From assembly GCA_001574975.1 (NCBI GenBank), contig KQ965753.1, positions 248,001 through 312,000 of the forward strand: a stretch of 64,000 bases of DNA. Direction: 5' to 3'. The position numbers and the translations under genes are program-made. Source of the stretch: Gonapodya prolifera JEL478. Taxonomy: Eukaryota > Monoblepharomycota > Monoblepharidomycetes > Monoblepharidales > Gonapodyaceae. The notes below the pieces were generated by a model, which made no database searches, was not told the origin of the DNA, and saw only the letters and a program-made list of their open reading frames with translations. Positions 10,178 through 39,329 of this stretch are shown here, one piece after another; position 1 is the stretch's first letter, and every line of letters starts with the position of its first letter.

Positions 10178-11359
10178 ATGACCTCCCTGATCGATGCTCC
10201 CGCGAATCGTCCCCCCCCCTCCTGAATCTCCCCACTGAAGTTCTCCATAAAATCTTTGGGCCTCCTGGCGACCGACTCGCTTGCCACCGTATGCCTCACC
10301 TGCCACGCAATCAACACGATCGCTGCAACGCTCCCCTCGCGGTCTCGATACGCCATTCGCATGGAAAACGTTTATAGCTCGTCGGAGGAGTTGGAATCGG
10401 GGATTGAGCGTTCCCTCGGGATACTGCAGCGCGCAATATTCAACGGCGATGCCATGGTGTTTGCGTCGGGCGTTGTTTCGATCAATCTCGACCGGGAATA
10501 CATGCCCATCGACATTAACGTCATGGTTCTAATTTTGGACACTTTCACCTCCCTCCACGAGGCCTCCTTCATCGGATGTCTGGAATCCGGGCGAGATTTT
10601 GTGAATCTGGCGTCTGAGAAGGGTCGCTTTCCGCTATGGGCGTCCGGAAGCCTGAAGAGTTTGGACTTGTCAGACAGCGAAACGAGGGGTAAAAGAATTG
10701 CAAAGGGACCTCTTTATCGGGGGCACGTTAAGCATACCGCAGCGTGGATACGAGACATGGTGGATTTGGTCGTACCTTCCGCAATACCGTTTCGGCGTCT
10801 TGGGTTGGCGCTCACTTCGAGTATTTTGACTTACCCCCGCCCTTGCACATCTTGTGGTAAACATCCCTCATGCTCTTGGAATCGCGGCGGCCACTGCATA
10901 TATTGCAGCGAACCAGAAGTGTGTTTAGAGTGTGGAGATACTCTATTATCCCTCGGCACCGTCAGGTTTGAATGCCCCGGGTGCATCGAGGTATTCAAGC
11001 TATGTCCACCCTGTCGCGGAAACGCAGGCTGGACACCGTGCGCGAAGATTGGCGATTGTGGTTTAGAAGTATGTCCCAACTGTGGGGCGCCATGCGTTGT
11101 TTGTGGGAATATTTCTCCGTTCTGCCAGGAACACGACACGGTGTGTGAATGCGATATAATGTGCGCGGAATGCTACGACCGGACCGAGTGCAAAGTCTGC
11201 GGTGACTTCCTAAGTGACCGAGCTGGAAACGGTATCTGTAAGGTCTCGACGGGACATACTTGTCCTTACTGCGACTCAAAACAGAATCCAACGGATTCTG
11301 GACTATCTGAAACGTCGACAGATGCGGAATCAGACGTGGAATCGAATGCGGAATCATGA
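10178..11359 (+). CDS. F-box-like protein with C-terminal Cys-rich zinc-binding region (frame doubtful at N-terminus)
   Basis: The N-terminus reads as F-box (LLNLPTEVLHKIFGLLATDS), presumably for SCF ubiquitin ligase binding. A middle region of about 200 aa follows, then about 110 aa dense in CxxC pairs (CTSCGKHPSCSW, CIYCSEPEVCLECGD, CPPCRGNAGW, CPNCGAPCVVCGN, CAECYDRTECKVCGD, CPYC), implying several zinc sites. From 10256 to the stop at 11357-11359 the frame is open. Upstream, the ATG at 10178 is in the same frame but is cut off by TGA at 10223, while the F-box helix lies one frame over. Two single-base length changes, at the C9 run (10211-10219) and at TTTGGGCCTCC (about 10255-10262), would restore one continuous frame. 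Either the gene carries two indels or the homopolymer lengths are misread. Confidence 0.65.
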
Positions 11360-16995: not shown

Positions 16996-19900
16996 ATGAA
17001 CGGCAACGCGCACGCAAAAACTGACGGTCTCACATCCGCTGAAGCTGCAGAGCGTCTCAAATCATACGATGAGAATCGTCACTCCACGATTCTTGGGTCT
17101 GGTAATCTCCACCCACGTTTCGACTGCAAGACCCCAACGACCCCGATAACCCCAAACTGCAGCGCACGTTTCACGCGGTCGTGTGGGAGGAAGTGCAGGA
17201 ACCCATGATGGTGCTGCTGCTCATCTTGGGCACCCTGTGCTCGCTCTGGGGAAATGTGGTCGACACACGTGCGTGGCTTGTTCTTGGACGTGGATAGGGA
17301 AACGTTCATGTCGACGATGCTGATCGTGTGATGTTTTTCTCCGTACAGTCACAATCTTCGTCACCGTGTGCCTACTGGTCTCCGTCGAAGTGGGGACCGA
17401 GTACAACGCCAAGAGCTCGCTCGACAAACTGCACGGCTCTATCGTGCACAACATCGCCGCTTTAAGGGATAAGAAGCTCACAATTCTGCGGTCGGATTAT
17501 CTCGTTCCAGGTATCTAAGGCGGGGGGTGAGGGGGGGGGTGACCGACGGAGGCATGCGAGCACAGCGAGCAGCCCGGAGGAGCGAGCCCGAGGCCTAAGC
17601 GCCACTAGGCGCTGACCGAGGCTGTCCGCCGGAGGCGAATATCCCGCGCGGAGCGTGTATCGAGACGACAGGTTGAAGGATCCATCGCTCGTTTCCCAAC
17701 CACAACCAACCCATCTCATCTCATCCCCACCCGCCCACCCACCTAGGCGACATATTCTTCCTCTCCCGTGGCCAAAAGCTCCCCTGCGACGCTCAAGTCC
17801 TGGAGTGTGTCGGGCCTGCCGTGGACGAGAGTCTCTTGTCGGGCGAGTCCGCACCCGTGTCCAAGTTCGTTCCCACTGAAGGCGTGGCAGGATCCGACGA
17901 AGATATGGAAGTGGAAGTGGACAAGTGCTACGCGATGACGAACGTTGTTTCGGGACGAGGTGAGCAATTTGGACTCCTCTTACTTCTGTCCATTCCATCA
18001 GGTGCTGAAGGGGCAAGTTCTCCCTCAACGCCCGCCCCCTCCGCTCCAGGCACATTCCTCGCCACCAACACCGGCCTCACAACCCACTACGCCCACCTGC
18101 GCGCACTCTCGCACAAACGCTTCCGCCAAAAAGACCGCAAAACGCCCATCCAAAAACTCATGTAACGCATCACCTACATCCTCATATGGAACGCCGCAGC
18201 AGTGTCCTTACTCGTGCTCCTCCTCTCCTACTTCGTCGTCGGGACCACATGGCAGGCATCCATCCTCACAGCCATGTCCCGCGCCTTTGCGACTATCCCC
18301 GACGAGCTGCCCCTTATCGTCAAGGCCGTCACGGCGGTCGGAGCAAGGAAGATGGCCGACCACGGAGCGCTTGTGCGAAGGCTAAGGGCGGGGGACTCCT
18401 TGGGTGCCGTGGAGGTGCTGGTCACGGATAAGACGGGAACCCTGACGAGGGGTATTGGAATGGACTTGCGCAGCGCCGTGTTGATTGCGGCGGGTGATTT
18501 CGTGGGCGCTCATGACGCCGCCGCGGCCGCGCAGGCGATCGGAATGGCGAACCCCATCAAAGAGATCTATCCCGCCAGCCCCCCCCCCTCGTCCCGTCAG
18601 ACGTTGAGCGTATCGCGCTGTTCCTGTCCACGTGGGCGCTCTCCACGGGTCTCCTCGACGCAACCACAGGAGACTCGCACTCGCTGCACGAGATGGACGT
18701 CTTTGACGCTGCAATCCTGGCCTACTTGGATACAGACAGCGGCCGTCTGCCCGTGTACAGGGACGCCCTGGCCTCGGCGATCGCAGAGTTCCCGAAACCC
18801 GTCGCGGAGATGCCGTTCAACCCGACCACGCGAATTTCGGGACGGTGCCGGTCATCGAAGACCGAGCAGGCGGTCCGCGTCGCGGTGGTGCTCAAGGGGT
18901 CGCCCGAGACCGTCATTGCGCATTGTACCAGGGCGATCGGGCCCTGGAAGGCGGGAACTAGTCCCGGCGCCGCACCGGACACGGTCGACCTGACCCCGGA
19001 AGCCCACGCGGCGGCGTTGGGTTTTTTCCACGAGGCGGCCAACACGGGCCAGGTGATTGCGTATGCCATGCGGACGTTCGAAGTCCCCGACGAGCCGGCG
19101 TCCGACGACGCAGGGTTGTTCGCGTCCAAGGACTTTACGTTTGTCGGGGGGTTCCTGTTCCACGACCCCGTTCTCCCGTTCTCGCGTCCGCTGCCGACAC
19201 CGTCGCTAAGCTCCGCGAAGCCGGGGTGCGCGTCATCATGGCGACGGGAGACGGGGAGGGCACCACGGCGGCGGTGGCGAGCGAGGCAGGGATCCATCTT
19301 GGACCGGCTGTCGCGGGGACGGTCGTGGGCGGGCAGGAACTCGCTCGGGTGTTGGCCGCCGCCGCGCCGGAGGAGAAGGACTTCAAGGACGAGCTTGCAG
19401 CCGTGTACTACCGTGCCTCCCCGGAGAACAACTACGCGCTCGTGACGGCGCTGCAGAAGGCGGGGCATGTCGTCGGTATGGTGGGTGATGGGGCGAATGA
19501 CGGGCCGGCGCTGGCGCAGGCGGATGTTGGTGTGGCTGTTGGTGGGGGGGACGAATCGGACGATGAGTGGGATGTGTGGTTTTGGTTGTTGGTGTGATGG
19601 GTGAAAAATGGGTGCGGTTCTTGTGTACAGGATGTCGCGATGGACTCGGCCTCATTGGTGCTGCTGTCGCCCGAAGGTGGGATTGCGGGGCTGGTCGACT
19701 GCATACAGGAAGGACGGAGGATGCGCGATAATGTGCGCAAGACGGTGATTTTTTACCTGGGTTGTAAATCAGCGGTGGGTCATCAATGGTGCTGAAACAA
19801 GGATCAACCGTCGATACTAGTGCGAGGCACCGAATCCTTTCACGAAGATTATCATCCTCTTTATTGTTGCTCTGGTAACTATTCGTAAACTTCCCCTGAA

Positions 19901-20335
19901 CCCCGTGCATGTTGTCATTCTTGAAATGTTCATGGATGTTGTTGGGTAAACTCTTGCATACCAACCATCTTAGGTGCTTCGGCAACCTTCCCCGTCGAGC
20001 CTGCTGAAGGTCACGTCCTTCGCCGTCCACCATCGAAATCTACCGACGGCGTTTTTGGGTGGCACGCAATCACGACTATGGTGTACGCTTGTCTCGCTCT
20101 CTTTGGTGTCGTCGGAGGAGCATTCGTAGCGGGACTTCTACTTCTCGCCCTGGAGCACGACCCGAGCGCTGACCCTCGTTTACCCGTTTCCATGGCTTTC
20201 ATGGCGTGGCTGATCGGACACGTCGTTCTGGGACTCTCATGTCGGACGCAAGTAGAGCCTCTGAGAGTTCACGGGTACTTCACCAACACGCGGTTCGGAT
20301 TGTGGGCTGTCGCGGTGTTTGGATCGGATATTTAA
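16996..20335 (+). pseudogene. P-type cation-transporting ATPase gene, frame broken at several points
   Basis: Nearly the whole of a P2-like ATPase can be read. The cytoplasmic start has GLTSAEAAERL (17022) and EVQEPMMVLLLILGTL. The actuator has GDIFFLSRGQKLPCDAQV and LSGES (about 17829). Then come IPDELPLIVKAV (18294), the phosphorylation motif DKTGTLT (about 18426), MATGDGEGT (19238), GDGANDGPAL (about 19485) and late membrane helices to a stop at 20333-20335. Motif residues, including the catalytic Asp, are intact. Breaks: TAA at 18163-18165; a frame change at the C run at about 18579-18588; a frame change near 19180; unresolved joins near 19545 and 19950; and a 29-nt intron or indel at 17102-17130. 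Clear introns are at about 17270-17348 and 17511-17746. It is either a recent pseudogene or a gene hit by assembly errors. Ion specificity (Ca2+-like or other) is not decidable. Confidence 0.7.
17536..17665 (+). repeat. GC-rich palindromic element E1, inside an ATPase-gene intron
   Basis: It lies within the 236-nt intron 17511-17746, which is about three times longer than typical introns here. It contains the hairpin AGCGCC-ACTA-GGCGCT (17598-17613) and repeats of the GAGCGAG/GGAGCG type. A core of 48 bp (17579-17626) aligns to the minus strand of 34285-34332 (element E2): both read GGAGCGAG, then AGGCC, AAGCG, GCGCTG, CC and AGGCTGTC in that order. A second shared block, CGCGGAGCGTGTAT (about 17646), matches CGCGGAGCGAGTAT in E2. 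Confidence 0.7.
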
Positions 20336-20524
20336 GTACCGATTTATCGACGGTCATAACATCGAAATCAATTGTCCGACTTGAGACCGACGTAAATATT
20401 CGGACTCACAAATAAATTACTCGCTGTTCGGATTTTTAGATGAACCCCTTTGATAGGTGGTGTTGGTCCGGGCAGATCCGGACAAACACCCGGAGGAAAC
20501 AAAAATCTATTTGACTCACAAACG

Positions 20525-22241
20525 ATGACTGCCCTCGTAGAGAACACCGCCTTCCTTGAGCGTCTCTTATCTGAACGCTCTCCGCAGATGCCGCTCTCTG
20601 ACCGGATGTCATCGTCCCCCTCGGAGCAACATCTGGCTCGAATTCTCCAGGTCGCGGGTATCGAATCGTACGGGCAAGCACCCGCTTCCCCTCCCCCACC
20701 GAGCTCATCCAGCGGTCAGCAGACACCCCCTGATGGTCTCAAAGGGGCTCCCGCCATGTACCAGAACCAGCAGGGGTCTCCGTTCGGTCTCCGCTTCCAA
20801 CACGACCAAGCCGGAACAGACCAGATGCTCCAGCTTGAGCAGCAGATGGCCGGACTCGACATCGACCAAGCGGAAGAAGAGATGGCGATGAGGATGCAGA
20901 TAGAGGAGTGGATGCTCCGCGAAGGTGAGCAACGCACGGCCGGGGTCCGTGGGCTTTTGTTGGCGACATGGGGAGCATTCTGGGCGGACGCGACTCGCAC
21001 CACGTCTGTTGGGACCCTCGATACCTCGTATCTTTATTCTACGGATTTGGTGATGGTTGGACGCAAGGAGAAGGAGTACTGTTCCCCTTCGGGTGTTTTT
21101 TGCGGGGAATTGACGTGGCCGAACGAACATGGATCCTCAATCACCGGGGCATATATTTGTGACCGGATAATCTTCTAGAGCGTAATTCGGACTGTTCCGG
21201 ATGCATCCGCAGGGGAACGAATGCGTTTGCTTCCTATCCGGTTATCGTTGGAATGCCCGTGCACTTAGAACCCTATTTAACCTTTGTCTATTATTTCCAG
21301 GTCAAGTTCGCTCCTTCAGCAACCACACTCTCCGCAATCTTGCCTCGCCAGATGGATACGCTCTCCTTCCCCCGGAGGCCATCGCGCGAGCGCAGCAGAT
21401 GGGGATCGACATTCGCACCTTGTCGAACCTCTCCAACTCCCGATCTTCGTATCCACCCGCATTCGCCGAGTCCGGTAACGACATGGACTTTGGTGTAATG
21501 GGCTCGGGGCATCCACAGACGTTCTCGCGAAGGTCTGCGTTCTTCCACCGTGATCTTCCAAACGTTACTCCACCCGAGGGCTACGTCTGCAAGCTGTGCT
21601 TCGTACCTGGACACTTTATGAAGCACTGTAGTTTGTACCGCGAAAGGCCTCGCTTCGAAGGCTTCCGGAAAGGTTACTCTGCCGATGTTCCTCCAGAGAA
21701 CTATCTCTGCAAGGTACGACAGATTCGAATACACCATTCGTTGCATCGTACTAACACTGCACATTGTTTTTCTCAGCTCTGCTTTATTCCCGGTCACTTC
21801 ATGAAGAACTGCTCTTTGTACAAGGAGCGGTCTCCTCAATACCCTACCGTCCAAAACAACAACGGTCCCATCTACCGCAAGGATGGCTCCATGGGTACCC
21901 CACCGCCAGGTCTTTACTCGCCCGCCATTCAGAGGGCTGCCCAGCTTCGTGCGGCCGGAATCACCATGCAGAACGCCGGCATAAGGAAGCCCTTCACCAC
22001 CGTGCCACCCGATGGCTACGTCTGCAAGATCTGCGGAGTCCCGGGTCACTGGTGAGAATAGGATTATTTACCGCTGTCAATCCAAGAAGCTCATTTTTTC
22101 GGATTTTCTTCAAGGATTCAACAGTGCCCCATCCGCCACATGCAGCCAGCTCCTGCGCAGCACTCCAACGCTATGGGTAACTTCGGGTACGGCGCAGGCA
22201 TCCAGAACCAGTACGACAGCCAGTGGGAGCGTGGATACTAG
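20525..22241 (+). CDS. CCHC zinc-knuckle protein with three knuckles
   Basis: Four exons, join(20525..20924, 21301..21713, 21777..22051, 22115..22241), 404 aa, with all phases agreeing. The N-terminal third is low-complexity and acidic. Three CX2CX3GHX4C knuckles follow, each preceded by a PP(E/D)xYxCK lead-in: residues 230-243 (CKLCFVPGHFMKHC), 270-283 (CKLCFIPGHFMKNC, interrupted by intron 2) and 354-367 (CKICGVPGHWIQQC, completed only by the acceptor at 22114). The last resembles the knuckle of MPE1/RBBP6-type mRNA 3'-end factors, but no ubiquitin-like DWNN or RING domain is present. RNA binding is a fair inference; the pathway is not known. Intron 1 is long (376 nt) and could hide an extra exon. 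Confidence 0.8.
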
Positions 22242-22438
22242 AGGACAATGCCAACACATCACTCACCCCATTCTCGATTTTCATTTCATTCTTTTCTTTT
22301 CTCTTTTGTCTGATCGGGTATTCGATAACTTAGATTATCTTTTCTACGGAGGCGGGGACCACATTGGATCTCGTGAGGCGAACTATGTTTTGTCTAGAGC
22401 TCTGGATACCGTGTCTGGAGCGGTTCATTTTCTCCGCT

Positions 22439-22744
22439 ACTTTTTTTTTTTTTTTGGATTGCTACCGTCTGAAAAAGCGGGAGAGATTGTGTGGACGTGT
22501 TACATCAATGTGTCACAATCAACTTCACCATCCATTATTGTGTAGTGGTGTGTTTTGTTCCTGGATTCAGAAATGTATCGCAATTGCAAAAGAAATACTA
22601 TTTTCATGACAGTCTATGTTCTGATGAAAAGAGAAAGAATCTAGTCAAATCTTCTCAGTAACAGCGGTCGATTTAGAATACAACACCAATGAAGCCCCTT
22701 CCTTCCAGCCCTGCGGGTTCGATATGTTCTTCGTGTCCCCAAAT
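22439..22744. other. 3' flanks of convergent genes, with a T homopolymer
   Basis: This lies between the CCHC gene and the end of the patatin gene. A run of about 16 T begins near 22441. Nothing else is recognisable. Confidence 0.4.
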
Positions 22745-23909
22745 TCACTGACTGAAATCAGAGCTTCCGCCCGTCCAAAAAATTCTGTCAAAACCTGTCC
22801 TCTTGACAGTATCCATCCATCTCTTCACGTCCCGCTCTCCGTCTTGCATAATCTGCATCAAAGCGTCCCTACTTCGTGGTGGGAAGAGTCTGTAAATGCC
22901 CGGGTAGCGAGGAAGATCCACGGGTGGTGAAATGTCGGCTTCACCAGAGTACGGTGATACGGTGAAGGTTCGCGAGTCCAGCACAGGTTGGTGACCAAAA
23001 CGCGAAAAACAGCCGTCGATGTAGAGTCGTCCGTCGACAAGAAGGGGTGGCTTTTCGTTCTGTTATCCGTGTGGAATTAAACTTCAGTGATTATTCCTGG
23101 AATGGATCTTGGCTTGTATACTACTCACGTAGATCGGAATGTAGCTTGACGCATGAATCATGTTGAGGAGGTGATCGTTGGAGGGGAATTCGGAAACCTT
23201 TATTAGCGGTTCGCAATTGCAGTCATTGGAGCGCAGCCAGAATGCCACATTATGAACGCACCAAGACATTCTTCATATCCGGAAACGAGGTGACGCTCAA
23301 GAAGAGTTTTCCAGAGAGAAACTCGTGGGCCTTTTTTCCTACCCTTTGCTCCCACTGTTCAATGATCGCACGGAGCTCAGCAGAGACAACCCCGGCGACC
23401 TTCCCAACGGGCCCAGAGAACCGATTGGTGCGTCTGTGTTCCAAGACATTGAAGTAGTAGTCCACGATACGGGACGTTGGGACGTCGAGAGCACAAAAGA
23501 GAGCGATGATGGATCCGGTGGACGAACCGAGGTACTGGATTGACGAAAGGGCAGAGGGTGGGAGGTGGTTTCGGAGGGTAGCCACGACTCCTAGGTATGA
23601 TACAGATAATACGTAGAATAAAATTGATGTTTGTTGATCGCAAGCTTGGGACCCACCGATGTGGTAGATTTTGAGCCATCCGCAACCACAAAACGAAACT
23701 TGGAACGGAGGATTTGCACGCAATGAGTCCAAAGAGTCGGAGAGCTTGAGCAGATTCTTCTTTACGTTGAAGGAAAGGTCGCCGGTGAGATGCGACCAAG
23801 TGTAATTAGATGTCATCCGCTTCATGTTTCCAACGTAGGAGCGATTGGGGAGTTCGAAGGCCTTTTTCCAGAGCTTTTCTAGACGGGGATGATTTTTTCG
23901 CAGCTCCAT
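22745..23909 (-). CDS. PNPLA-type patatin-like phospholipase/lipase
   Basis: Four exons, complement(join(22745..23059, 23129..23197, 23262..23590, 23657..23909)), 321 aa, all phases closing. The oxyanion region reads CGCGWLKIYHIG and continues VVATLRNHL, as in the adiponutrin/ATGL (PNPLA2-4) group. The nucleophile elbow is GSSTG with Ser108. The catalytic Asp is Asp232 in YIDGCFSRFG, where the usual DGG is DGC. The block SRTFTVSPYSGEADISPP also matches PNPLA2-like proteins. The expected activity is hydrolysis of acylglycerols or phospholipids by a Ser-Asp dyad at membranes or lipid droplets. An upstream exon ending INDPVIHSIGIHDE (about 24035-23990) can be joined in phase through an intron ending at the SLMELRK codons, so the real start may lie upstream of 23909. 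Confidence 0.8.
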
Positions 23910-24289
23910 TAACGACTTTAAAACCCGGTCTGTGGTTCAAATCGAAATTTTGCTTTCGTGCAGTATCACTGGAGTCTGTTTTATGCCATACCTCGTCGTG
24001 TATACCAATGCTGTGGATGACCGGGTCGTTTATGAGGAAAAATACTCTCTTGCAGAAGAGTGAGAATCTCGAAACTCCAAGTCAGCGTGTTCGTCAGCTT
24101 GGATGCAAAATGGAGGCCGAACGAAGCTATCCTGCATGCAAGCGCTTCCCGGAATGAGGTCCGTCGCCACTCATTGTCACGTGGGGATCTTCCTGCCACA
24201 TCAGAAGCGTACCGAACGTTGAGTCCACGCCACGAATGGCAAAGGGAGGACACGCTGGGTGCATGAGTTCCGGGCCAAACGCGAAAGAC

Positions 24290-25433
24290 ACTGGATCTCC
24301 GACCAAGAGTTATCATTCCCGTCACGGTTCTCATCACCGTTGCAGCATTTCTGCTCGACATTCTGTCTCTCAAGAGGGTTCAACTATCTTTGCTGCGGAT
24401 GCTGCGCCTCGCCGGATCATTGCGTGGAACGCACGTGGATCGCAGCTGGGGGGCGCCTTGGGGTGCAAGCCGAACTCCCTTTCGCTCGAAGATTGCAGTG
24501 ATGGTCCTTCCGAGCGCATCGATCTTCGCAGGGTGAGACGAATGCATTACACGCCGGTCTGCCAGCCGTCCAATCGTCGTTCCTCATTAGACGGTGGAAG
24601 GTGGAACACTGTCCCAAAGAGCTTTTGCAACAAGTATTGACAGCCCAAGGTACGCCCGATGTTATGATGGTATGGGCGCAACCGGCGCTAATTATCAACC
24701 TGAAGGAATGAGCTGGTTTCGGAAGGAAATCGTCCTCCACGCACCTGTATTACCCGTTTTGGAAGTCTCTGTGGGACACTCGGCGGAAAGAAAGTGCGAA
24801 GTGCTGACGCTTGCCCAGAAAGGTGATATGACTGCAGCTCATGATGTCTCGAGCGGCCTGCGTTGGAATTCCTGTTCTTGTCATACTTACCCGTCTCACA
24901 ATTGCATGGAAAAGTCCCTGGTTTTCACACTGCCAACGAGTTCAGCGTTGACGGAAAGCCCAAGACCGTCTTGGATAATTTGTACGGCCAGCTGTTCATT
25001 GCATTTTGGTGGGAGAACGGCACTCTTGTTCAGGTAAGGAGTCCGTTTTCTGGCTTCTCCATTTGTGTGCATACGATTTTGGTCTCGCACTGATCTCAAT
25101 AGCGAACTGAGTCGACGAATCCTCCGTGGACGATGGTTGCGAAGTGGTCCGTTGCGGCCGATGGAAAAACCTATGTTCGGGACAATACATTCACCGTGAG
25201 TTTTGCTCCGATATGCGTGTACTTGGCTGTGGCGTGTAATTTCGAACTTGAAACTGACCCATCCGCTTATTGGCAAATCAAAGTCGCCAACATTTTCCAC
25301 TTCTTTTCAAACCATTTACACTCGTTTGCACCAGAATTACCCCGCGGCCCTTGGACCTCACGAAACTTCACCGCATGCTTCATCCCTTTATCACAATCAT
25401 GGTTCCCCGCAGTTGATTCAGTTGCAAGCATAA
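24290..25433 (+). CDS. Unrecognised multi-exon gene
   Basis: Support comes from splice-like joins. An exon from about 24290 encodes a hydrophobic segment (VIIPVTVLITVAAFLLDIL) and ends near 24534 before GGTGAGAC. An acceptor near 24591 resumes RWKVEHCPKELLQQVLTAQG. Later exons encode FSVDGKPKTVLDNLYGQLF and AFWWENGTLVQ (to about 25032), then an intron GTAAGG...CAATAG. After it come RTESTNPPWTMVAKWSVAAD to about 25196, then GTGAGT, and a last exon SPTFSTSFQTIYTRLHQNYP to the TAA at 25431-25433. The middle joins (24680-24850) are not resolved. The composition suggests a single membrane anchor followed by an extracellular or lumenal domain rich in Trp. I recognise no family. Confidence 0.4.
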
Positions 25434-26059
25434 AGAACGATTCTGGCTTAAATCTTCAGAGCCGCCCCTACCATTCGATCATCATATATTCAAACACATG
25501 TATTTACTCATTACATCTGCAAATGTGCACCGTTGAATCCGTCATGCTGAAATCAAGCCCTCGGCCACCAACTTCCGGAGTGATCAAGGAAGCCGAATTC
25601 CGTTCAGATACATTCTCCAGCAGCCTACATAAAATGGTATAAATGCTATTGATACGAGTGGTTTCCATGGCGAGTCTACTATACCGATAGGTCGGACGGG
25701 TTAGGAGTTCAGAGCAATTTGTTCCATTCCCGCCTTACGCCCTCGTCTCTGCATCTCCTTTGTAGTTTCAATTTGAAACGAACACCATCGGACTGCGGAG
25801 GCGAAAAACAATTATTGCACTCTGGCGCGTATTTTTCTACACGACTGACCAAAGTTTGGGAAAGAGTTACCTCAAATGTTGCAGTTCTTTACAATACGCC
25901 CCGAATACTAACGCCGATCCCTAAACAAACACAGACTTTTCATGTCCCAGTCTGTGATCCGACATGTAACACGCGTCGACCCAGGGACTGTGAATCTCAA
26001 TACGCCCGAGCTCCGGATTTGAATATTTCTGACTTACAACTTCCGATGGTGCTCGGAAG
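25434..26059. other. Intergenic, nothing recognised
   Basis: Only short frames. No repeat, RNA gene or splice-supported exon was found. Confidence 0.4.
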
Positions 26060-27342
26060 ATGAACAGATTTCCGTGGCACATGGTCGCGGTTGCAGCGGC
26101 TGCCACTGCAGCGATTGGTGGAGCAACACGCTTCGACCCCTGGACGATACTGCTGTCGAACTTTCCTTCTCCACGGCTGCTGTGCATGGAACATAGATGC
26201 GGCAAAGATGATCCAGGATTTTGATTTCGGGCGATCCCTGGACTTCCAGGGGATTTGGAGGGAAGCTGATATAGCAGCATCGCAAAATCGTCATGTGGAA
26301 ATTGTTAACACTATCGCGGAGATGAAGGAGGAACCTGAAGGCCGAGACAAGTGGTCTCTCGAAATAGTAGCGGAATTCGGTCCTCTTTCCCGTATGCTGA
26401 CCCTCATGTCGACCCGCTTTGAGTCTTACCAAGACCTTACCGCATCCCCATAATGCAGCAAAGAGGCTCGCCGTCGAAGTCGAGGCACTTCCAGCGCTCC
26501 TCAAGCATTACACGAAATGCAAAATTGACCTGGAAACCTCCAGATGAAACTCTTGGATCTCTGCAGCCCTTCGCACACAGTGCTACTACGAGAAAGGTGA
26601 CGCAGTGCAACTCTTGGTCGCTGAAGGTGCCTGCTTCAGTTCCACCCATTTCAACCTCATGGCGGCACGTGGAGAGACTGAGACACTGAAGGCGATGTTT
26701 GATATCCTGGAGAATCTAGGAGAGACAATGCCCCAAAAGGGCTTTTTACTCTCTACGTCTCGATTCAATCACATCTCAACGGTACGACTTCTCCTGGAGC
26801 GCCACCCCGCAAGCCGAGGTCAGGTACACGAGGCGCTCATTGTTGCAGAGCGGCTTGGGCGGGCGGGATTACTTCGGACAATCATCTCAACCGTCCCGGA
26901 ATCATTTGTGACGTCCGATGGGTGGATTGAGAGAGCTACCACACGACGTGCGTGCACGCCGATAGTGAAAGTCCTTCTTGACCTACACAATCTTGGGACG
27001 ATTCAAGTGGATCCGAAGAAGATGCTTCTGGATGCCCTGCTCGCGTGGCACACGAGGGCAGTGAAGCACCTCCTCCCCATTGCCGCAAGCGAGGGTACTG
27101 TGCGAACGATGAGGAACCTCCTGCGTAGTGGCCTCAAGAGAGAACCATTGGTAGACGTTCACGAGGGCGATGATGCGGTACTCATTGCTGCAGTCGAGGC
27201 CTCAATGTTGACCTCGGCGACGTTCCTGCTCTCGCACGGAGCTCGTGTTGGCACCAAACGGGGGAGGGCGCTGAAAGTTGCGGAAAGAAGACGGTATGAA
27301 CAAATTGTGGACGCTTTCAGAGCCCAAGTGAACGACCATTAG
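26060..27342 (+). pseudogene. Decayed paralogue of the ankyrin-type gene at 28363-30318
   Basis: The C-terminal 245 codons (26605-27342) are open and align with the end of the intact gene: LLPIAASEGTVRTMRNLL versus LLPIAGKYGRVKVLRRLL, and EPLVDVHEGDDAVLIAAVEA versus APLVDIYARDNNALLYATEA. Upstream the match continues in other frames: NTIAEMKEEPEGRDKW (about 26310) versus DTIAEANELPEGRDMF, and WHMVAVAAATAAIGG (about 26075). The frame changes at least twice (near 26215-26235 and 26390-26600), and no F-box-like start is present. It lies in inverted orientation to the intact copy, with ADE8 between them. Confidence 0.7.
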
Positions 27343-27593
27343 TGTTCGTATAATTTGATGTGACTCTGACGTTTCTACATGCCGTGCTGCAAATTGCGAT
27401 AACATTGAGTCGACACCTTTTGCTGTACACATTTTTTTTTCGTCCATTGAGCAAATATAGTGATCCGTTCTTGGAAGTGAATTGAATGTGATACGGACCC
27501 GAACTTTTTCCACTCGTCAAACCGTCGACATATAATACACATTTATGTTCCTTATTACTATTGTGCGAATGCACCGCTGATGGCGACGGTGAC

Positions 27594-28250
27594 CTACGAC
27601 ATGTTGAAACCCAAGTCCTCCAACCTCTTCCGAATGCCCTCGACGATGAGACCGTGCTCGGTTTCATGAATCCGAGTCTGCAAGTTCTCGAGCGTATCTC
27701 CGGGTAGAATCGGCACCTCTCTCTTGCATACCACCTCGCCTCTGTCCACCTCTGGAACCACTTTATGCACCATCACCCCCGTTCGCGAAATCTTTCCCTC
27801 CTTGAACGCCGCATACGCCCTCTCAATCGCCTCTGCTCCGTCGAACTCTCCCGGCAAGGCCGGGTGGAGGTTGAGCACAGTACCCTCTGCAAAGTGCGCG
27901 AGGAACCGCGGGGACAGGATGTGCATCCACCCAGCGAGCATTACGAGGTCTGGTTTGTAGTCCGTGGCAATCTTCCTCCCGAGCTCGTCGTCGTAGTCCT
28001 CGCGGGTCTTGCCCTGGTCTTTGAAGGGTTTGAGGGTGAAGACGAGGGTGGGGATGCCAGCTTTCGCCGCACGCTCGAGGCCGAATGCTTTGGATCGATT
28101 CGAGACGACAAGTGCGATGTCGGCGGGGAGAGATGGGTGGGAGGAGTCGGCGGAGGGAGACTGAGTGGATGCGTCGATGATTGCCTGGAGGTTCGATCCG
28201 TTGCCCGAAATCAGAACAACGGTGCGCGGCTTTCGGGAATGTGAAGTCAT
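27594..28250 (-). CDS. ADE8: Phosphoribosylglycinamide formyltransferase (GAR transformylase)
   Basis: Single exon, 218 aa, close to the usual 200-215 aa of the family. It transfers a formyl group from 10-formyl-THF to glycinamide ribonucleotide in step 3 of de novo purine synthesis, in the cytosol. The N-terminus carries the phosphate-binding VLISGNGSNLQAIIDA. The formyl-folate site is MLAGWMHILSPRFL. The catalytic Asn-His-Asp set is visible as LNLHPALPGEFDG (Asn, His) and the Asp in VPEVDRGEVV. A stand-alone enzyme is the fungal and bacterial arrangement, whereas animals fuse it with GARS and AIRS. It sits between the decayed and the intact ankyrin-type genes. Confidence 0.95.
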   Translation of the reverse strand: MTSHSRKPRTVVLISGNGSNLQAIIDASTQSPSADSSHPSLPADIALVVSNRSKAFGLERAAKAGIPTLVFTLKPFKDQGKTREDYDDELGRKIATDYKPDLVMLAGWMHILSPRFLAHFAEGTVLNLHPALPGEFDGAEAIERAYAAFKEGKISRTGVMVHKVVPEVDRGEVVCKREVPILPGDTLENLQTRIHETEHGLIVEGIRKRLEDLGFNMS

Positions 28251-28362
28251 GGTGATGTCTGTGCGGCTACTGGGGACGCGGACAGGGCTGTCGATTGAGT
28301 CAAATGAGATGGAGAAACCGATTGCTGCGGTGAATGCTAGCTGTTTTCTTCCTTTATTGTTC

Positions 28363-30318
28363 TTATTTCGACGAGCGATATAAATTTAAAACGTTCACCA
28401 CGGCATGATCACCCCGCGCAGTCGCTACTTCCGCAGCCTGCTCTACATGATTGTCTACATTTACCCCTAATTTGAGCAGGAACGCCACGGTTCCTGCAAC
28501 GCCCGCCTCGGTGGCATATAAGAGTGCGTTATTGTCTCTGGCGTAGATATCCACAAGTGGCGCGCCCTTGCCACGAGGTAGCAGGAGCCTTCTGAGGACC
28601 TTCACGCGACCATATTTCCCCGCGATTGGTAAGAGACGCTTGGCGGCAGATTTGATAGTGGAGACGTCACAGAACTTGAGTGCAAACTTGAGTAGGAATA
28701 TGGCAAGGTTGGTGGTGAAGCCTTCCTGCACTGCAGACCAGAACTCGTCTGACTGACACAGAGCCGAAGCGTCGACAAGGTGCCGACGCAGGATCATACG
28801 GACCACGCCAGTGTGACCGCTTTGTGCGGCAGTGATGACCATTCTCTTCACGTCAAACTCGATGACGCCCTCCTTGCGTAGGTCAAGAAGAAGTGCCATT
28901 GTGCTCGTGTGAGCGCGGTTCGTGGCCGCACCCTGCACCCACGGGTCGGACGGGACGAACGTGTCCGGGAGCGTTCTGATGACTGATCGAATGATATCAG
29001 GCCGGCCCCACTGCCCTGCAGATTCCAAGACTCGAGGTAGCAAAGCCAGGCTTGCGGCATGTCGTTGGAGAAGAAGGTTGACAAGCACAGGATGGTCCCT
29101 CCGAACAGCAGTTAACACAATATCGGCATCAGGGGCTCCAACGTCGTATTTTTCCCAAATCGTCAGCAAAACGTCCACCACATCTACGTGTCCCAACGTC
29201 ACTGGTTCAACGAACATGGCCGCTTCAGTGACAGCGCCACGGTCACAGAGAAGCTGAACAGAATCGGCCGCGCCCTTGGAGCACGCGGCGCTGAGGGCCT
29301 CACTTAGGTCCTTCTGGTCAAACCAAACAGACGGTGGGTGCCACCAGTCGAGAAGCGCCTTTAACGGTCCTGCATATCGTCTCGTCGCAGCTCTCGCGAT
29401 GATGGATGGGGGTATGGTGGAATAGGAGTCTGATCGGTCCTCGAGCAGAAGTTTAACATGATACGTAGGGCCAGACGTCGCCGCTATTCGAAGGCAGAAC
29501 ATGTCTCTCCCCTCAGGAAGCTCGTTCGCTTCTGCAATTGTATCGATGATCGTCAAGTGTCCCTTGGATGCTGCAATCCTAGCCGCCTCCACCCACACGT
29601 GGAGTTCAAATTTTGCCGCACTGCTTCCAGCTGCACCGCACCTTTCCGCGAGCATCTTGACGACATCCAAATTCCCGCTGTGTGAGGCAGCGCGCAAAAT
29701 GGTGTGCCACGTATACTGTCCCATTGGCGGATGGATGTTACACAAGGCCAGGACCATATCTCGCCCAACCGCCGCATTTCCGGCAGCGGCCGTCACAACG
29801 AGGTCCCATTGGTACGGCTCCATCCATCCGAGCTGGGCCGCCACAAGCCGGAACAGCTCTACGTGAGGGGATCGTGCGGCTGTGTATAAAAGCAGGTACT
29901 CGAAGCGCGTGGGGTACTTCGAAGTTGTGATCGTTGCGCCGTTCACGAGGAGCAGCTTTACGGCGCCCACATGGCCCGCATTAATAGCTCTTGCAAGCGG
30001 TGTGGGGCTGAAGGTGAGTGACCGGGCTGATTCGTTCCGGAAAATCACTGGTTGGTTGATGTCTTTCACGAGCTGTAGAATAAGTTCAAGCACGGCAGCG
30101 TCCCCCTTTTCGGCTTCAGCGGCGAGAGCATGTTCCGGAGAAGAGAAATGTCGGAGAGCCCTTTGGGCGATCGATTGCGGGTGGCGGAAGATGGCGAGGA
30201 GTGATTTGTTGAGGGCATCGACGGGAAGCGCGAGTCTGAAGTCGATGCAGAAGAGTCCGATGTGGGAGACGATCTCTGTGGGAAGCGATAGCAGAGGAAA
30301 CTTCGATGGCAGTTCCAT
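28363..30318 (-). CDS. F-box-like/ankyrin-repeat protein
   Basis: One long intronless frame, 651 aa from the first ATG (30318); the frame is open to 30393 but without an earlier ATG. The N-terminus (LLSLPTEIVSHIGLFCIDFR) looks like an F-box helix. The rest is a solenoid of degenerate ankyrin-like repeats of about 33 aa, for example PLARAINAGHVGAVKLLLVN, AASHSGNLDVVKMLAERCG, AVRRDHPVLVNLLLQRH and ATEAGVAGTVAFLLKLG. This layout suggests a substrate receptor for an SCF-type ligase, but the target is unknown. A broken paralogue lies at 26060-27342 in the opposite orientation. Confidence 0.8.
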   Translation of the reverse strand: MELPSKFPLLSLPTEIVSHIGLFCIDFRLALPVDALNKSLLAIFRHPQSIAQRALRHFSSPEHALAAEAEKGDAAVLELILQLVKDINQPVIFRNESARSLTFSPTPLARAINAGHVGAVKLLLVNGATITTSKYPTRFEYLLLYTAARSPHVELFRLVAAQLGWMEPYQWDLVVTAAAGNAAVGRDMVLALCNIHPPMGQYTWHTILRAASHSGNLDVVKMLAERCGAAGSSAAKFELHVWVEAARIAASKGHLTIIDTIAEANELPEGRDMFCLRIAATSGPTYHVKLLLEDRSDSYSTIPPSIIARAATRRYAGPLKALLDWWHPPSVWFDQKDLSEALSAACSKGAADSVQLLCDRGAVTEAAMFVEPVTLGHVDVVDVLLTIWEKYDVGAPDADIVLTAVRRDHPVLVNLLLQRHAASLALLPRVLESAGQWGRPDIIRSVIRTLPDTFVPSDPWVQGAATNRAHTSTMALLLDLRKEGVIEFDVKRMVITAAQSGHTGVVRMILRRHLVDASALCQSDEFWSAVQEGFTTNLAIFLLKFALKFCDVSTIKSAAKRLLPIAGKYGRVKVLRRLLLPRGKGAPLVDIYARDNNALLYATEAGVAGTVAFLLKLGVNVDNHVEQAAEVATARGDHAVVNVLNLYRSSK

Positions 30319-30628
30319 TGTGATGCCGCGGACATTTCCAAGTCCTCCCCCTGGACTTTTCTTCCAAAACCAAAAGCCCTCAAGCTTGAGCAATCCAGGT
30401 GGGAGAGAACAAATGCTTGAGATGTTTTTCGTGCGTCACGTGCAATGCATAGGAAACACGCTGTGATGTAACTTTTTCTAAAGCACAAGTAAAACCCAGC
30501 GAGTAAAGGTAGGCAGTAAATAAAGTTCGTCGGACGTGATCATGGCTGACTGCCAGGTTTCGGTTTGTCATGACAGTGCTCGATGTGTTCACAGCCTGCG
30601 CACCAGAGCAGCAGATAAGAAAAAGTGT

Positions 30629-30920
30629 TCAGAAATGCCCTGTAACAAGACTCGACGAACCTCTATCCTGCGGAGGAGTCGTCTGTGAACGACGTGGTTC
30701 ATCATGAAGTGAGTGAGTGCGTGGTCAGTGTTGAATATGGCATAAGGGGTGGCGAGAACATGGCTTCCTCGAGACTTACTAGACCTCTACCTGCACATGG
30801 CTGACCAGCCTGGCACACGGCGCCACCGACGCTGAAGTCTTGTCGCGTTTGGATGGGGACGGCGCCAACAAGGCATGCCAAGATCCCGAGGAGGAGGACG
30901 AACGTAAGAAGTAGACGCAT
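30629..30920 (-). CDS. Small secreted peptide, 64 aa
   Basis: Two exons, complement(join(30629..30682, 30780..30920)), with a perfect GTAAGT donor and CACAG acceptor and a 97-nt intron that keeps phase. The N-terminus MRLLLTFVLLLGILACLVGA is a textbook signal peptide, with cleavage likely near GA-VPIQ. The mature part is about 42 aa: a QTRQ segment, two cysteines spaced C-x5-C (CQAGQPC), then a Gly/Ser/Pro tail ending LVTGHF. No family is recognised. Dibasic or KR-type processing sites are absent, so it need not be a pheromone-like repeat precursor. It could be a cell-wall or effector-like peptide. The same exon 1 frame also reads past the donor, giving a 72-aa unspliced alternative. Confidence 0.5.
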
Positions 30921-31950
30921 TGTCCAGGTTTGCAACCGTGCTCAGGTTATTCAAGTTCGACCGCTTTTAAGCGCCGCTAGGATGTGCATAGTACCCTTCG
31001 TGGGAAGGAACCGCCAGGTAAATGTGGGTCCGGAGAAGTTACCTCTCTTTCTTTTTGATCAAAAACGAGAAAAGCTTAATATCGTCTTCCCGTATGAATT
31101 AAATTCATAAGTATCAGTATCCGTTTGCACATCGTTGTATGGTTATATAATGTGCAAAAGTTGTGTTCGCGTTGTGGGTGCGAACCAAACCATTTAGGTT
31201 ACATCAGCAGTTTTTCGAGCAAGAGTAGCATACGTTCTTCAATACTCATCATGTCCCGCACGGTCGCTCCAACAGACTGCAACACTTAGATCTGAACCAG
31301 ACTCTCAGGGAAGTTATTCCATATTTTTTTATCCATAACTCTCTCCATTTCCCTTTTGCGTTTGGCCCTGAGATTGGGACCAGTTCCCTTCGTATCGCGT
31401 GTTTTGATTAAGGAGACGCTGATGAACGCTTCATAGAGTCCATTCCCCGATACAAATGCAATCTAACTGCAGGATGTCGCCCGATCGGTTTGGGAGAGAC
31501 TTCTGCTGCACACCGCGGCAACAGTTTGAAAAATCACATTGTTACAATCCTATCTCCAAACCGCCATCGAATTAAGGCTTTTAAACGTTGACAACATTAC
31601 CTCCATCTCGCCGCCGAGCATGTGGATCTAACTTGCGGTCAACCTTGACCAGATTGATCGCCTCTCCGCAACAATGTAAACTGCTCCAAATACATACGTG
31701 TCGCTCACTCTGGACTCTGGTGTTCTACGCCTTTCCTCCGTTATGCTTCATGCCACCCAAGGCGCGAGCACGACATTATCTGGCAATACGCTGGCACCAA
31801 TTACACCCAAGTGCTTCATACCTTTCGTACGGCATCACAGGTCAACAATATTCTTTCTGAGTCGGGAAAATGAGCTTTGATTCCGTTCGGTGCCGCACGG
31901 CTGATCTCCAGCCGAACAACACACCCACCCACTCCTTCTGATTCACTCCC
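30921..31950. other. Intergenic, 1 kb, nothing recognised
   Basis: AT-richer than its surroundings, with only short overlapping frames. It should hold the promoters of the secreted-peptide gene (minus) and the SDR gene (plus). Confidence 0.4.
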
Positions 31951-33657
31951 ATGCCACGATTCGACGTCCGCGGCAAGGTATGCTTCTCGGCAGATTCCTA
32001 CCTCGACCGTGCTGAAACGAATCGCCTGCTCCCCATGCACCCTGCTTCGAAATGGAACTCACCTCCCTGCCAAAGGTCGCCATCATCACCGGAGCAGCCA
32101 GCGGATTCGGGGAGGGTCTTGCTCTACGGTACGACCTTCCAACTTCCTTGCACTCCTTTCCTTATAGCAATTCGAACTCGACCTCATTGTCTCGGTGTTG
32201 GTGTTTGGTGTTCGGGCCAGTCTTGCCGACCAGGGCGCCAACGTTGTGTTGGGAGACCTCAACGAGGCGGGACGTACGCTGGCAGATGCTATTAATAAAA
32301 AGTGAGGGGGGGCTGACTGTATCTTTGGCCGCGTTCGCCATCAGACAAAACTAACGTCTGATGTTAATGTCAGAGCTGGAAAGACAGTCGCGGCGTTTTC
32401 CAAATGCGACGTCACGAGCCGAACTGACATGACGACGCTCTTTGAAGTCGCCAAACGGAACTTCGGCCCCGTCGATGTACGTCGCTTTCTCTTCCTCCCA
32501 GCCCGAGGTGCAACGTCGGTTCAAATCACCTTTCCCACGCCTGCGCCGCCCCACGTCGCCTTCAGATATTTGTCGGAAACGCTGGGATCCCCGAACGCCG
32601 GGTCTTTACCGAAGACGACGAAGACACCTGGAAGTCCGTCACGGCGGTGGACCTCGACGCTGTCATTCTAGGCACGCGGATGGCAATTACGGAGTTCAAA
32701 AGGGCGAACAAGAAGGGCGTGGTTGTGAATACAGCGAGCATGGGTGCGTGCGTGCGTGATTTTTGTGGTAGGGGTTGAGTGACGGTGTGGTGATGGTCGT
32801 AGCCGGATTGGTGCCTGTCCCGGAAATGCCGGTTTGTGAGTACCACGTCCACTGGAATGTCTCGCGCTGTCTCACCATCCTTTATCGAAAGACTCAGCAG
32901 CGAAAGGCGGTGTGAGTAGTACGCCACTCTTAGCACTGTATCCATAATCCCATTGACTCCGGTTGCGACCTGGTTTCCCGACCTCAACTTCGCGTTCCAC
33001 GCCAGCTCGTCCACTTTACACGCTCCCTCAGCCGTCTTCACTCGCAGCTCAACATCCGTGTCAACTGTGGGTACCACGTCCCTTCCTTCCCCCTTTCCAC
33101 ACAACTAACAACTAACGTCACACCATCTTTCTCCCATTTCCCAATTCCTATTTCCGGTTTCCCTTGCAATTACAATTTCAGGCGTATGTCCCGGCGGCGC
33201 CGCCACCAACATCTTCAACCACCCCCTCGAGCGGGTCGAAGAGGACGGCACCGTTACAAGGTTGGAGAGGGGAAAGTTGAGTGCCGGGAGTTGGCTGAGT
33301 GTGGGGCAAGGTGAGCGTGGGAGAGGGGAGGTAAAATGGTGGTGGGGAAAAGGTGACGGGAGTGACTGACAATGCCTCCTCAACCTTGCCCGTGGTGATA
33401 AAGTCGTCGACGCGATGTTGCACGCGATTGAAGACGAGTCGATTTTTGGTGAGTTCAGTGGACCGGACCGGAGGTCTTCCTGCCGGGGCCTTCCTTTTCG
33501 TCTCGCAGTTTTACGTGCACGGTCAGCTGACACACCGAATATGCCACTTACATGTACAGGCCAAGCCCTCGCCGTGACGATCGATAGGGGCATTCAGATC
33601 AGGTACCATGGGTTCCGCCAGCCGCCAAAGGCGTTGCCGTATTTGTCCAAGATTTAA
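31951..33657 (+). CDS. Short-chain dehydrogenase/reductase (classical SDR)
   Basis: Eleven exons: join(31951..31977, 32076..32128, 32221..32301, 32374..32476, 32566..32743, 32803..32835, 32892..32911, 33006..33066, 33182..33310, 33404..33448, 33560..33657), 275 aa, with every phase closing. The cofactor motif TGAASGFG is at residues 14-21, NAG at 93-95 and the catalytic YSAAK at 159-163, the latter created only by using the acceptor CGAAAG at 32886-32891. NIRVNCVCPGGAATN follows and is the usual SDR segment after the active site. It is an NAD(P)(H)-dependent oxidoreductase of unknown substrate; the Asp ending strand 2 (VVLGDLNE) favours NAD(H). Exon 7 is only 20 nt. Confidence 0.85.
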
Positions 33658-33936
33658 AACGCGACTCGAGGCCGAGGGAGTCTGACACATGAGGAAGGAA
33701 GAACATGTGGCTGTGGGAGAGGGGTGGGTAAAACATGTGACGGAGAGATATTCTCCGCTCGTGATATATGATTCTGCTGGGACCGCGGTGATTGTTCTAA
33801 GTGGATATGAACACCGTTTATGACGACCGGTTTATGTAACAACATGCAGAATTATATACACAAAGTAGAAGCTCGCACGCCTAGCTCCCACCATTCCTAA
33901 GTCAAAAGTCCTCCCACGAGCACGAGCGCGTCGCCG

Positions 33937-35006
33937 TCATCGGTCAGTCGCCTTCGGTGTGAACTTTTTCAACCACGCACTCTCGGGCACTTTCTTTGCC
34001 CAGTCGGGAGCGGGAAGACGCGGCATTGCGGCCATGATGTCCATGATCCGTTGGGCGTCTTCTGATGGTGCGACAGGCGGCAGGCGAATGGAGCCGGGGG
34101 CGGCGTGGCGCGGGTGGTACAGTGGTAAGGCGTGGAGAAGGTGCAATTATCTCGGTCAGTGCTATCACGCTTAGGATTCACCCGCCCGGTTCGCGAGAGT
34201 ATTCCCCTCCGCGGGTTAATTCGCATCCGGCAGGTATACTCGCTCCGCGAGAGGATTCTGCTCTCCGGGGCACTCGCTTCGCTCGACAGCCTTGGCCAGC
34301 GCTGCTCGCTTCGGCCTTGGTGTCCTCGCTCCGCTCGCCGTCATCACCCCCTCCCTGGGGATCACGCACCATCACTCATTTTTGCATCCTGCGACATTGG
34401 CCCCTTCGCCGTAGAGGAAATAGGTTGCAACAAGGGCAGTTTACTCCAGTCTGCTTTCCAATCCGCAGTACCCATGGAGTGCGACCCTGCAATCCCTCCA
34501 TCCAGTCGGGACTCCACACCCGGGGGTGCCTCAAACTCCCCAAACGTATCCGCTTCAGACTCGCCCTCGTCCTCCCCTTCAGCCGGGGAGCCTCTTGCCG
34601 TGTCCGACCCCGACGTCGCGTCCTCGCTAAGCGTCGTTTCGGCGGATCGGGAAGCCGTGGGGAGGGGAGGCTCTGTGCCCAGTTCTGAAAGCAAGGGCTC
34701 GTATGCGAGTGATGGCGGGGAGTCGGGTGGTTGGGATTCAGACTGAAAAGGTGCGAGGGTTCACGGCGAAGACGGGAAATGGGACGTCGATCTGTCGTTC
34801 ACCTGTGCGTCCTCATGTAGTTCCATGGGCGGCGACGGTTCGTCGAGGGGGGCAGAGTCTCGAGAGATGTCGGTGTGCGAGCGTGAAGAGGCAGACGAGT
34901 CAGTGGGCGGGGAGTGGTGTGAGAGCATTTGAAGTGGAGTGTGTCTCGTCGGCAGAATCTGGTCGGCAGAATTGCAACTCACAGCTGACATCAAGTTGGC
35001 AGCCAC
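33937..35006 (-). CDS. Hypothetical Ser/Pro-rich protein with an FGEFE motif
   Basis: Three coding stretches are visible on the minus strand. One (35006-34761) contains PPTDSSASSRSHTDISRD. One (about 34750-34365) contains AYEPLLSELGTEPPLP, ADTFGEFEAPPG and GTADWKADWSKLPLLQPISS. The last (about 34144-33937) reads LPLYHPRHAAPGSIRLPPVA, MDIMAAMPRLPAPDWAKKVP and ends TPKATDR. The DTFGEFEAP string resembles the acidic FGxF motifs that bind clathrin-adaptor gamma-ear domains (inference). The intron between exons 2 and 3 (about 34365-34150) contains palindromic element E2. Its acceptor is not settled, because the nearest AG precedes a TAA. No family is recognised. Confidence 0.5.
34180..34365 (-). 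repeat. GC-rich palindromic element E2, inside an intron
   Basis: Read on the minus strand (host-gene sense) it carries GGCGAGCGGAGCGAGG, CGAGCGAAGCGAG, and the hairpin CTCGC-GGA-GCGAG (34239-34251 on plus). The core 34285-34332 aligns with E1 at 17579-17626 in the same order and orientation relative to its host gene. Repeated CTCGCT(T/C)CGCTCG strings give it a strongly palindromic, GC-rich character unlike the flanking exons. Confidence 0.7.
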
Positions 35007-38555: not shown

Positions 38556-39060
38556 TGGTTTGGTGGGGAGGAAAGGAATGAGGAGATGGTGCTGTTTCGA
38601 AACCAAACGACTTGCTACAAAGTGGCCCAAGTGGAAAACGCTTGCTAAAATAATAAGTAGAGCAAATTTGTTTGGCTGCTTTGACAATATCACACAACAA
38701 GACAAAAAAATCTTCACGTCTCATCCACTCTGGTAAAGAGAAGATGAAAAGAGAGAATAGAATCTCTACACCTTCTTGCGCGTTCGTCTTGAAACTGGAA
38801 GTACGTCTAGCTCTGAAAATTTTCGTTAGGTTGCCCTTGCGGTTCGTTGCCCACAACTTCACTGATGCATTCTCCAACAACTCCACACACTCGACACACT
38901 CGCTGCGGTTGGGCTCTCCCGGCTCCCAGTACTTGTGCTGGGTACTACTAATCACTACGATGGCTCGTTGGTTGATGGTACTTGAAAGCGAACAAAAGGG
39001 GAGATGCGTGGCTCTGGCAGGAACGAACATCGACTCCCAGCGGCAAGACTTTTCAACTCC
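38556..39060. other. Region upstream of CFD1, no gene recognised
   Basis: Open frames exist on both strands (for example plus 38672-39322) but have no recognisable motif or codon pattern. Promoter sequences for CFD1 are expected here. Confidence 0.35.
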
Positions 39061-39063
39061 TAT

Positions 39064-39325
39064 GCTCCATCGAACCCCTGCGGCATCACGCTTCGACTTC
39101 TTTCAATCGTCCAGACCTCCCTGTGGCGCTTCGACACTCAACATTACATTGCCTGCCTCAACTCTCGTCAAGACCTCCCCCGCGTCTACTCCTCTCTCCA
39201 CTGAACTTCGGCGACATAGTACTTCGACTTTTCTCCATCGTCCAGACCTCCCTTTATCGCTTCCACTCTCAACATCTTCGAGTGGCCTCAACTTCTCTCG
39301 TCAACACCTACCCCACCTCTAACTC
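39064..39325 (+). repeat. Diverged tandem repeat, two units of about 131 bp
   Basis: Unit 1 begins near 39064 and unit 2 near 39196. Shared landmarks occur 131 bp apart: CTTCGACTTCTTTCAATCGTC at 39091 versus CTTCGACTTTTCTCCATCGTC at 39222, each followed by CAGACCTCCCT, CGCTTC, ACTCTCAACAT (or ACTCAACAT) and CCTCAACT..CTCGTCAA. The identity is high but broken by small indels, so this is an old duplication. Confidence 0.75.
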
Positions 39326-39329
39326 GGGC

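What the first reader, a model, noticed from the sequence alone, without database searches (positions are those of the whole stretch)
17511..34365. Two homologous GC-rich palindromic elements, each inside an intron and each in host-gene sense orientation
E1 (17536-17665) lies in the 236-nt intron 17511-17746 of the plus-strand ATPase gene. E2 (34180-34365) lies in the intron between exons of the minus-strand Ser/Pro-rich gene. Read in the sense of each host gene, the 48-bp cores (17579-17626; complement of 34285-34332) share GGAGCGAG, AGGCC, AAGCG, GCGCTG, CC and AGGCTGTC in the same order, and a second block CGCGGAGCG(T/A)GTAT. Both are full of short hairpins. Host introns are about three times the local norm. 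Same-sense, intron-confined, dispersed repeats are what one expects of introner-like elements (transposons that create or live in introns). They could alternatively be generic GC-cluster mobile palindromes tolerated only in introns. Orientation bias from two copies has a 50% chance probability, so this is a lead, not proof.
Basis: partly seen in the sequence, partly recalled or inferred. Interest (0 to 1): 0.8.

Follow-up and report, generated by a model that had tools for sequence, protein, structure and literature searches.

The report
Sense-oriented intron repeats in a fungus
In the water fungus Gonapodya prolifera, a family of short GC-rich repeats with hundreds of copies sits near the start of introns, almost always in the direction the gene is read, which makes it an unusual mobile sequence that appears to live inside existing introns rather than create them.

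Summary
The window lies in Gonapodya prolifera JEL478 (47.6 Mb assembly). The shared core has 251 exact genome copies against 0 for the reversed control; a 12-mer of it has 494 against 9. In 86 distinct loci the better-scoring intron around the element is sense in 82; in the unbiased pattern sample in 27 of 28, and the exception has a Pfam domain spanning the sense junction. Copies start a median 25 nt behind the 5' splice site, often after a G-rich tract; the rest of the intron is unique. In two host families the intron is older than the element: GPD (paralogue introns of 95 and 81 nt at the same site) and an aldo-keto reductase (63 and 73 nt), none with element words. So intron creation is not supported; these look like modular, hairpin-bearing repeats that invade introns, without detectable target-site duplication. 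How they copy is inferred: strand-specific copying at intron starts, plus selection against antisense copies, whose strand has twice as many acceptor-like YAGs. A partner enzyme was not searched for.

The parts
17511..17746 (+). E1 host intron (236 nt) of a P-type ATPase-like gene
   Evidence: GT...AG ends; Pfam E1-E2_ATPase match, residues 149-273, spans the splice junction at residue 165
17517..17540 (+). G-rich tract between donor and E1 modules
   Evidence: sequence; spacers of the family have 51% G against 28% in control introns
17541..17657 (+). E1 element (5' hairpin module, core, 3' block)
   Evidence: family 10-mers; genome search 69 matches including itself
17597..17621 (+). E1 core hairpin AAGCGCC...GGCGCTGACCGAGG
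   Evidence: pattern census site C23:265597-265621
34062..34369 (-). E2 host intron (308 nt) of a Ser/Pro-rich hypothetical protein gene
   Evidence: the annotated paralogous protein P0121 aligns on both sides of the junction, with 30-odd extra residues at it; the C22 paralogue has an intron with an element at the same place. My forced strand test alone scored the antisense alternative slightly higher here
34134..34338 (-). E2 element (E module, degenerate core, 3' blocks, second core)
   Evidence: family 10-mers; 47 genome matches with query 34180-34365, including itself
34285..34332 (-).

Best explanation
E1 and E2 are two members of a non-coding, modular, hairpin-bearing repeat family, estimated at several hundred copies, that inhabits pre-existing spliceosomal introns of Gonapodya prolifera. 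A typical copy is: 5' splice site, short and often G-rich tract, one of several 5' hairpin modules, one or more ~90-nt core units, then the unique 3' part of the host intron. Shown: dispersal, intron confinement and sense orientation in the sample held, 5' location, prior existence of the intron in two families, no target-site duplication or second donor above control. Inferred: copies are made by a strand-specific, transcription- or RNA-linked or microhomology-anchored copying step that lands at intron starts. Sense copies are removed with the intron and so tolerated, while antisense copies are lost because that strand is rich in acceptor-like YAG.
For: Copy number: 251 exact cores against 0 control, 494 against 9. 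Intron and sense: ab initio model 77 of 90 loci in a sense intron, 6 antisense intron, 3 exon, 4 unassigned; direct sense-versus-antisense intron test 86 of 90, 82 of 86 unique and 27 of 28 unbiased, against 87 of 157 for random intervals in the same loci (90-nt instead of 120-nt flanks). Of 30 spliced host proteins scanned, 17 have a Pfam match clearly spanning the junction, 1 marginally, 6 have matches only beside it, 6 have none. Core-unit HMM: 221 sense hits, 7 antisense hits in 4 of 86 loci, two of these loci being each other's neighbour on opposite strands. Location: donor-to-element median 25 nt. Intron older. No TSD (mean longest shared word 5.44 against 5.42 permuted) and no second donor (1 of 61 against 9 of 213). 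Antisense YAG 31.3 against 14.5 per kb.
Against: The copying step is untested, and no RT or transposase partner was searched for. Elements persist in both members of three paralogue pairs (L001/L003, L005/L030, E2 and its C22 paralogue), which a neutral parasite need not do. Gene models are mine, self-trained on this DNA; only the GPD gene was checked exon by exon against an annotated protein. In the unbiased 28 loci the ab initio model alone gave 23 sense intron, 3 antisense intron, 2 exon, 0 unassigned, and five forced-test margins are small or negative: L051 -1.9, L058 2.6, L060 2.6, L052 3.2, L034 3.5. L070 and L082 scored better antisense; antisense hits in L021 and L027 were not resolved. 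Element ends are fuzzy, so a short TSD could be missed.
Confidence: 0.66

Rival explanations
1. Introners or introner-like elements: each insertion creates a new intron, and the unique flanks are decayed or recruited sequence.
For: Sense-only, gene-confined, no TSD, as reported for ascomycete introner families (PMC9860276 section 8). An acyl-CoA dehydrogenase paralogue (C1, 40% identity) has one uninterrupted match across the position of L053's element intron.
Against: GPD and AKR paralogues have the same intron without the element. Cores up to 100% identical over 60 nt sit in introns with unrelated 5' and 3' ends.
Confidence: 0.1
2. Ordinary mobile GC clusters or MITE-like palindromes that insert anywhere and survive only as sense copies in introns.
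For: The antisense strand has more YAG and a stronger best acceptor (median 3.78 against 2.11 for sense; real acceptors 4.69), so selection could set orientation.
Against: Does not explain the lack of intergenic copies among 28 unbiased loci (27 by the forced test, L051 by Pfam). No TSD detected.
Confidence: 0.15
3. Functional intronic modules (G-rich splicing enhancers or bridging hairpins) kept by selection; their spread is secondary.
For: Element introns have stronger donors (GTGAGT 31 of 61 against 28 of 201; by subset 13 of 21, 12 of 21 and 6 of 19) and more G-runs of 5 or more (28 of 61 between donor and element +12, against 45 of 510 in the first 45 nt of controls); kept in three paralogue pairs; core arms covary.
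Against: Only several hundred introns by estimate; paralogues have the intron without it; no excess fold stability; wobble over A.C excess not significant (21 against 11, p 0.11).
Confidence: 0.12

Closest known systems
Introner-like elements of Pezizomycotina fungi (PMC9860276 section 8 and passages; PMC4457414 passages)
   Same: Many similar copies, biased to genes, no TSD or TIR in ascomycete families
   Different: Those insert at positions lacking introns in other species and so make introns; here the repeat sits inside an intron that paralogues have without it, and intron ends are not shared between copies
Proliferating stwintrons of Hypoxylaceae (PMC8469720, passages)
   Same: Palindrome-bearing intron sequences that multiply without short tandem duplications
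   Different: Those integrate at new gene positions and carry splice sites; here no second donor above control follows the element (1 of 61)
Mobile hairpin elements of organelle genomes (double-hairpin elements, repetitive hairpin-forming elements, yeast GC clusters; recalled, plus title and start of abstract of PMC2800124)
   Same: Short GC-rich modular hairpins that spread and nest
   Different: Here nuclear, intron-confined and one-sense

Membership tests
Introner / introner-like element | Many near-identical copies in introns of unrelated genes | tested here: met
Introner / introner-like element | Insertion creates the intron (position intronless without it) | tested here: not met
   GPD and AKR: four paralogous element-free introns at the same sites; the one intronless ACAD paralogue (40% identity) is too distant to decide
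Introner / introner-like element | Element ends coincide with the splice sites | tested here: not met
   5' spacer and 3' part differ between copies
Introner / introner-like element | Gene bias and sense orientation | tested here: met
DNA transposon / MITE | Target-site duplication | tested here: not met
   61 clean introns, mean longest shared word 5.44 against permuted 5.42; element ends are fuzzy, so a short TSD could be missed
DNA transposon / MITE | Terminal inverted repeats | not tested
   element ends are not sharply defined
Stwintron | Second donor or internal intron | tested here: not met
   donor-like site after the element in 1 of 61, against 9 of 213 controls
Mobile hairpin element / GC cluster | Short GC-rich hairpin modules with paired arms | tested here: met
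   521 of 708 pairs, permuted max 481 in 2000
Mobile hairpin element / GC cluster | Insertion also in intergenic DNA, either orientation | tested here: not met
   27 of 28 unbiased loci in sense introns by the forced test, the other by Pfam; sample limited to contigs C1-C7
Known structured RNA | Rfam match | tested here: not met
   0 matches at E <= 0.1 in 12 loci

The most novel reading that the evidence does not exclude
A mobile sequence whose address is the functional 5' splice site: copies are laid down in the sense strand just behind the donor of existing introns, by a transcription-coupled, R-loop or spliced-intron-RNA route, so that the intron is a genomic safe harbour rather than a product of the element. 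It may act as a mobile splicing enhancer in the fungus with the highest intron density of 263 surveyed (PMC8476143, passages).
Probability: 0.3. Interest if true: 0.85.

Novelty: new variant of a known kind. Interest (0 to 1): 0.66.

Why it matters
Sense-only, gene-only repeats in introns are easily read as intron-creating introners. This family has those marks, yet the introns predate it in the two families where that could be tested well, so orientation and intron confinement alone do not show intron gain. It also gives a tractable case of an element that treats introns as its habitat, in the most intron-dense fungus of a 263-species survey, and it makes testable whether mobile sequences can find 5' splice sites.

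Tried and rejected
The introner reading was tested against paralogues. Stwintron or tandem-intron origin was rejected because no second donor above control follows the element. TSDs were sought and not found. A strongly folded RNA was rejected. Rfam on 12 loci and one exact 32-mer scan of viral contigs gave nothing. A first codon model was too weak and was replaced. A broader segment test with loose merging was noisy (117 sense better, 29 antisense better, 11 skipped) and includes spurious short segments. One search (protein search with a window ORF) found nothing at E <= 0.001. One search failed on a script error and was rerun. Intron lengths of the paralogues were recounted, as was the L076 G-run.

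Rows dropped: 90 loci became 86 after removing duplicates (L043, L049, L073, L074). Donor, spacer, TSD and YAG counts use 61 clean introns, chosen for plausible distances from 74 unique sense-intron loci; folding used the first 45 of these. Element-free control introns are ab initio calls, so weak false introns may dilute their donors; the seven element-free introns of the annotated GPD gene have 1 GTGAGT. Core-arm counts include some false regex matches; a stricter set is. The Pfam match of L034 is below its curated cut-off.
Full report
Organism. The spliced protein of one element host (L029, contig C108) matched an annotated NAD-dependent glycerol-3-phosphate dehydrogenase (GPD) of Gonapodya prolifera JEL478 on a contig of 167,459 bases, the length of C108. 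The annotated protein aligned with 339 identities, 25 gap columns and 1 other difference in 365 columns, the gap being a stretch that my own gene model skipped. Lim et al. 2021 (PMC8476143; passages read) report this species as the most intron-dense of 263 fungi (4.5 introns per kb).

Observation. The core pattern AAGCG-N(2,12)-GCGCTGACCGAGG occurs 251 times (139 on one contig strand, 112 on the other), the reversed control 0 times. GCGCTGACCGAG occurs 494 times against 9, and a 5' module occurs 47 times against 0. BLAST with E1 gave 69 matches in the 40 scored of 405 candidates; with E2, 47 matches in 36 candidates. From 1.31 exact 12-mers per locus that has one, and 19 of 27 E2-set loci having one, I estimate roughly 400-550 occupied introns; this is inference.

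Intron and orientation. I held 90 loci of about 3 kb: 30 from E1, 30 from E2, and the first 30 sites of the unbiased pattern census (contigs C1-C7). A self-trained codon and splice model placed 77 of 90 in a sense intron, 6 in an antisense intron, 3 in an exon and 4 unassigned; for the 28 unique unbiased loci it gave 23, 3, 2 and 0. A forced comparison of the best sense and best antisense intron around each element favoured sense in 86 of 90, or 82 of 86 unique loci and 27 of 28 unbiased ones. Random intervals in the same loci gave 87 sense and 70 antisense (90-nt rather than 120-nt flanks). The four that went the other way were L051, L061 (E2 itself), L070 and L082. L051 has a peptidase M20 match spanning the sense junction. 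E2's sense junction is supported by the paralogue P0121. L070 and L082 stay open. Among the unbiased loci L058, L060, L052 and L034 have small margins (2.6 to 3.5); L058 and L060 have Pfam support in sense, L034 only below the curated cut-off, L052 none. Of 30 spliced host proteins scanned with Pfam, 17 have a match clearly spanning the junction and 1 marginally (L054), 6 have matches only beside it, and 6 have none. The E1 host and its paralogue also have a spanning match. I submitted only sense translations, so this supports sense genes but is not a blind strand test. A core-unit HMM found 221 sense and 7 antisense units in the 86 loci; the antisense ones lie in 4 loci, two of which (L033, L034) are each other's neighbour in opposite genes.

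Anatomy. Copies begin a median 25 nt behind the donor. From +9 on, G is 36-64% by position against 21-34% in 201 control introns, and donors are stronger (GTGAGT 31 of 61 against 28 of 201, Fisher p 1.3e-8; weakest in the E2 set, 6 of 19). After this tract come alternative 5' modules and one or more core units; the 3' part of the intron is unique. In the C22 paralogue of E2 (intron 210 nt) the 3'-most core is shared but the 5' modules differ, and L001/L003 differ in the number of cores, so modules turn over. Further same-strand copies outside the main intron occur in 11 of 86 loci (that script counted same-strand copies only, the antisense ones being the 4 loci above). The core hairpin arms pair beyond permutation, yet whole elements do not fold better than shuffles, so I make no claim of a stable RNA fold.

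Does it make introns? In the annotated GPD gene the eight introns measure 67, 82, 71, 214, 60, 73, 90 and 70 nt; the 214-nt one holds the element. Two paralogues have an intron at the same place of 95 and 81 nt with 0 element words. In the aldo-keto reductase host L076 (450-nt intron in my model), paralogues on C86 and C103 have the same intron at 63 and 73 nt with 0 element words. A third family is not decisive: L053's distant paralogue on C1 (40% identity) lacks the intron. In three further pairs both paralogues carry elements. So invasion of existing introns is supported in two families, intron creation clearly in none.

Mechanism. Shown: 5' position, one sense, no TSD above chance, no second donor above control. 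The antisense strand has 31.3 YAG per kb against 14.5, and its best acceptor scores a median 3.78 against 2.11, with real acceptors at 4.69, so antisense copies behind a donor would offer false acceptors; selection can thus explain orientation. It does not by itself explain why none of 28 unbiased loci was intergenic, which points to a copying step tied to introns or transcription. Microhomology at donor plus G-tract, R-loops, or a spliced-intron RNA would each fit; none was tested, and I did not search for a partner enzyme.

Literature. I searched the open library for introner with basidiomycete or fungi, palindromic repeats in introns, Gonapodya with intron or transposable, repeat elements exclusively in introns, and hairpin elements (one search failed). 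I saw no description of this family in the listings; most subscription papers and all preprints are not held, and the supplements were not read. Gozashti et al. 2022 (PMC9860276; passages and section 8 read) name only Pezizomycotina (ascomycetes) among fungi in the parts I saw.

Noticed in passing
window 18163-18165: The E1 host ATPase copy has an in-frame TAA where the C22 paralogue (L003) reads on; it may be a pseudogene or an assembly variant.
   Followed up: partly
C23:265-282 kb and C22:273-291 kb: Hosts of both E1 and E2 have paralogues on contig C22, suggesting an old segmental duplication.
   Followed up: partly
L076, intron 3' of the element: A run of 72 G inside the host intron.
   Followed up: no
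L005 and L030: Paralogous elements differ by what looks, by eye, like inversion of a hairpin loop in a 5' module.
   Followed up: no
L095 / P0121: The annotated C22 paralogue protein includes about 30 residues that appear to be read from the 3' end of the element intron, a likely annotation error.
   Followed up: partly
window 4710-7673, 9020-10598, 38891-42892: Tandem and inverted duplications, pieces 71-96% alike.
   Followed up: no
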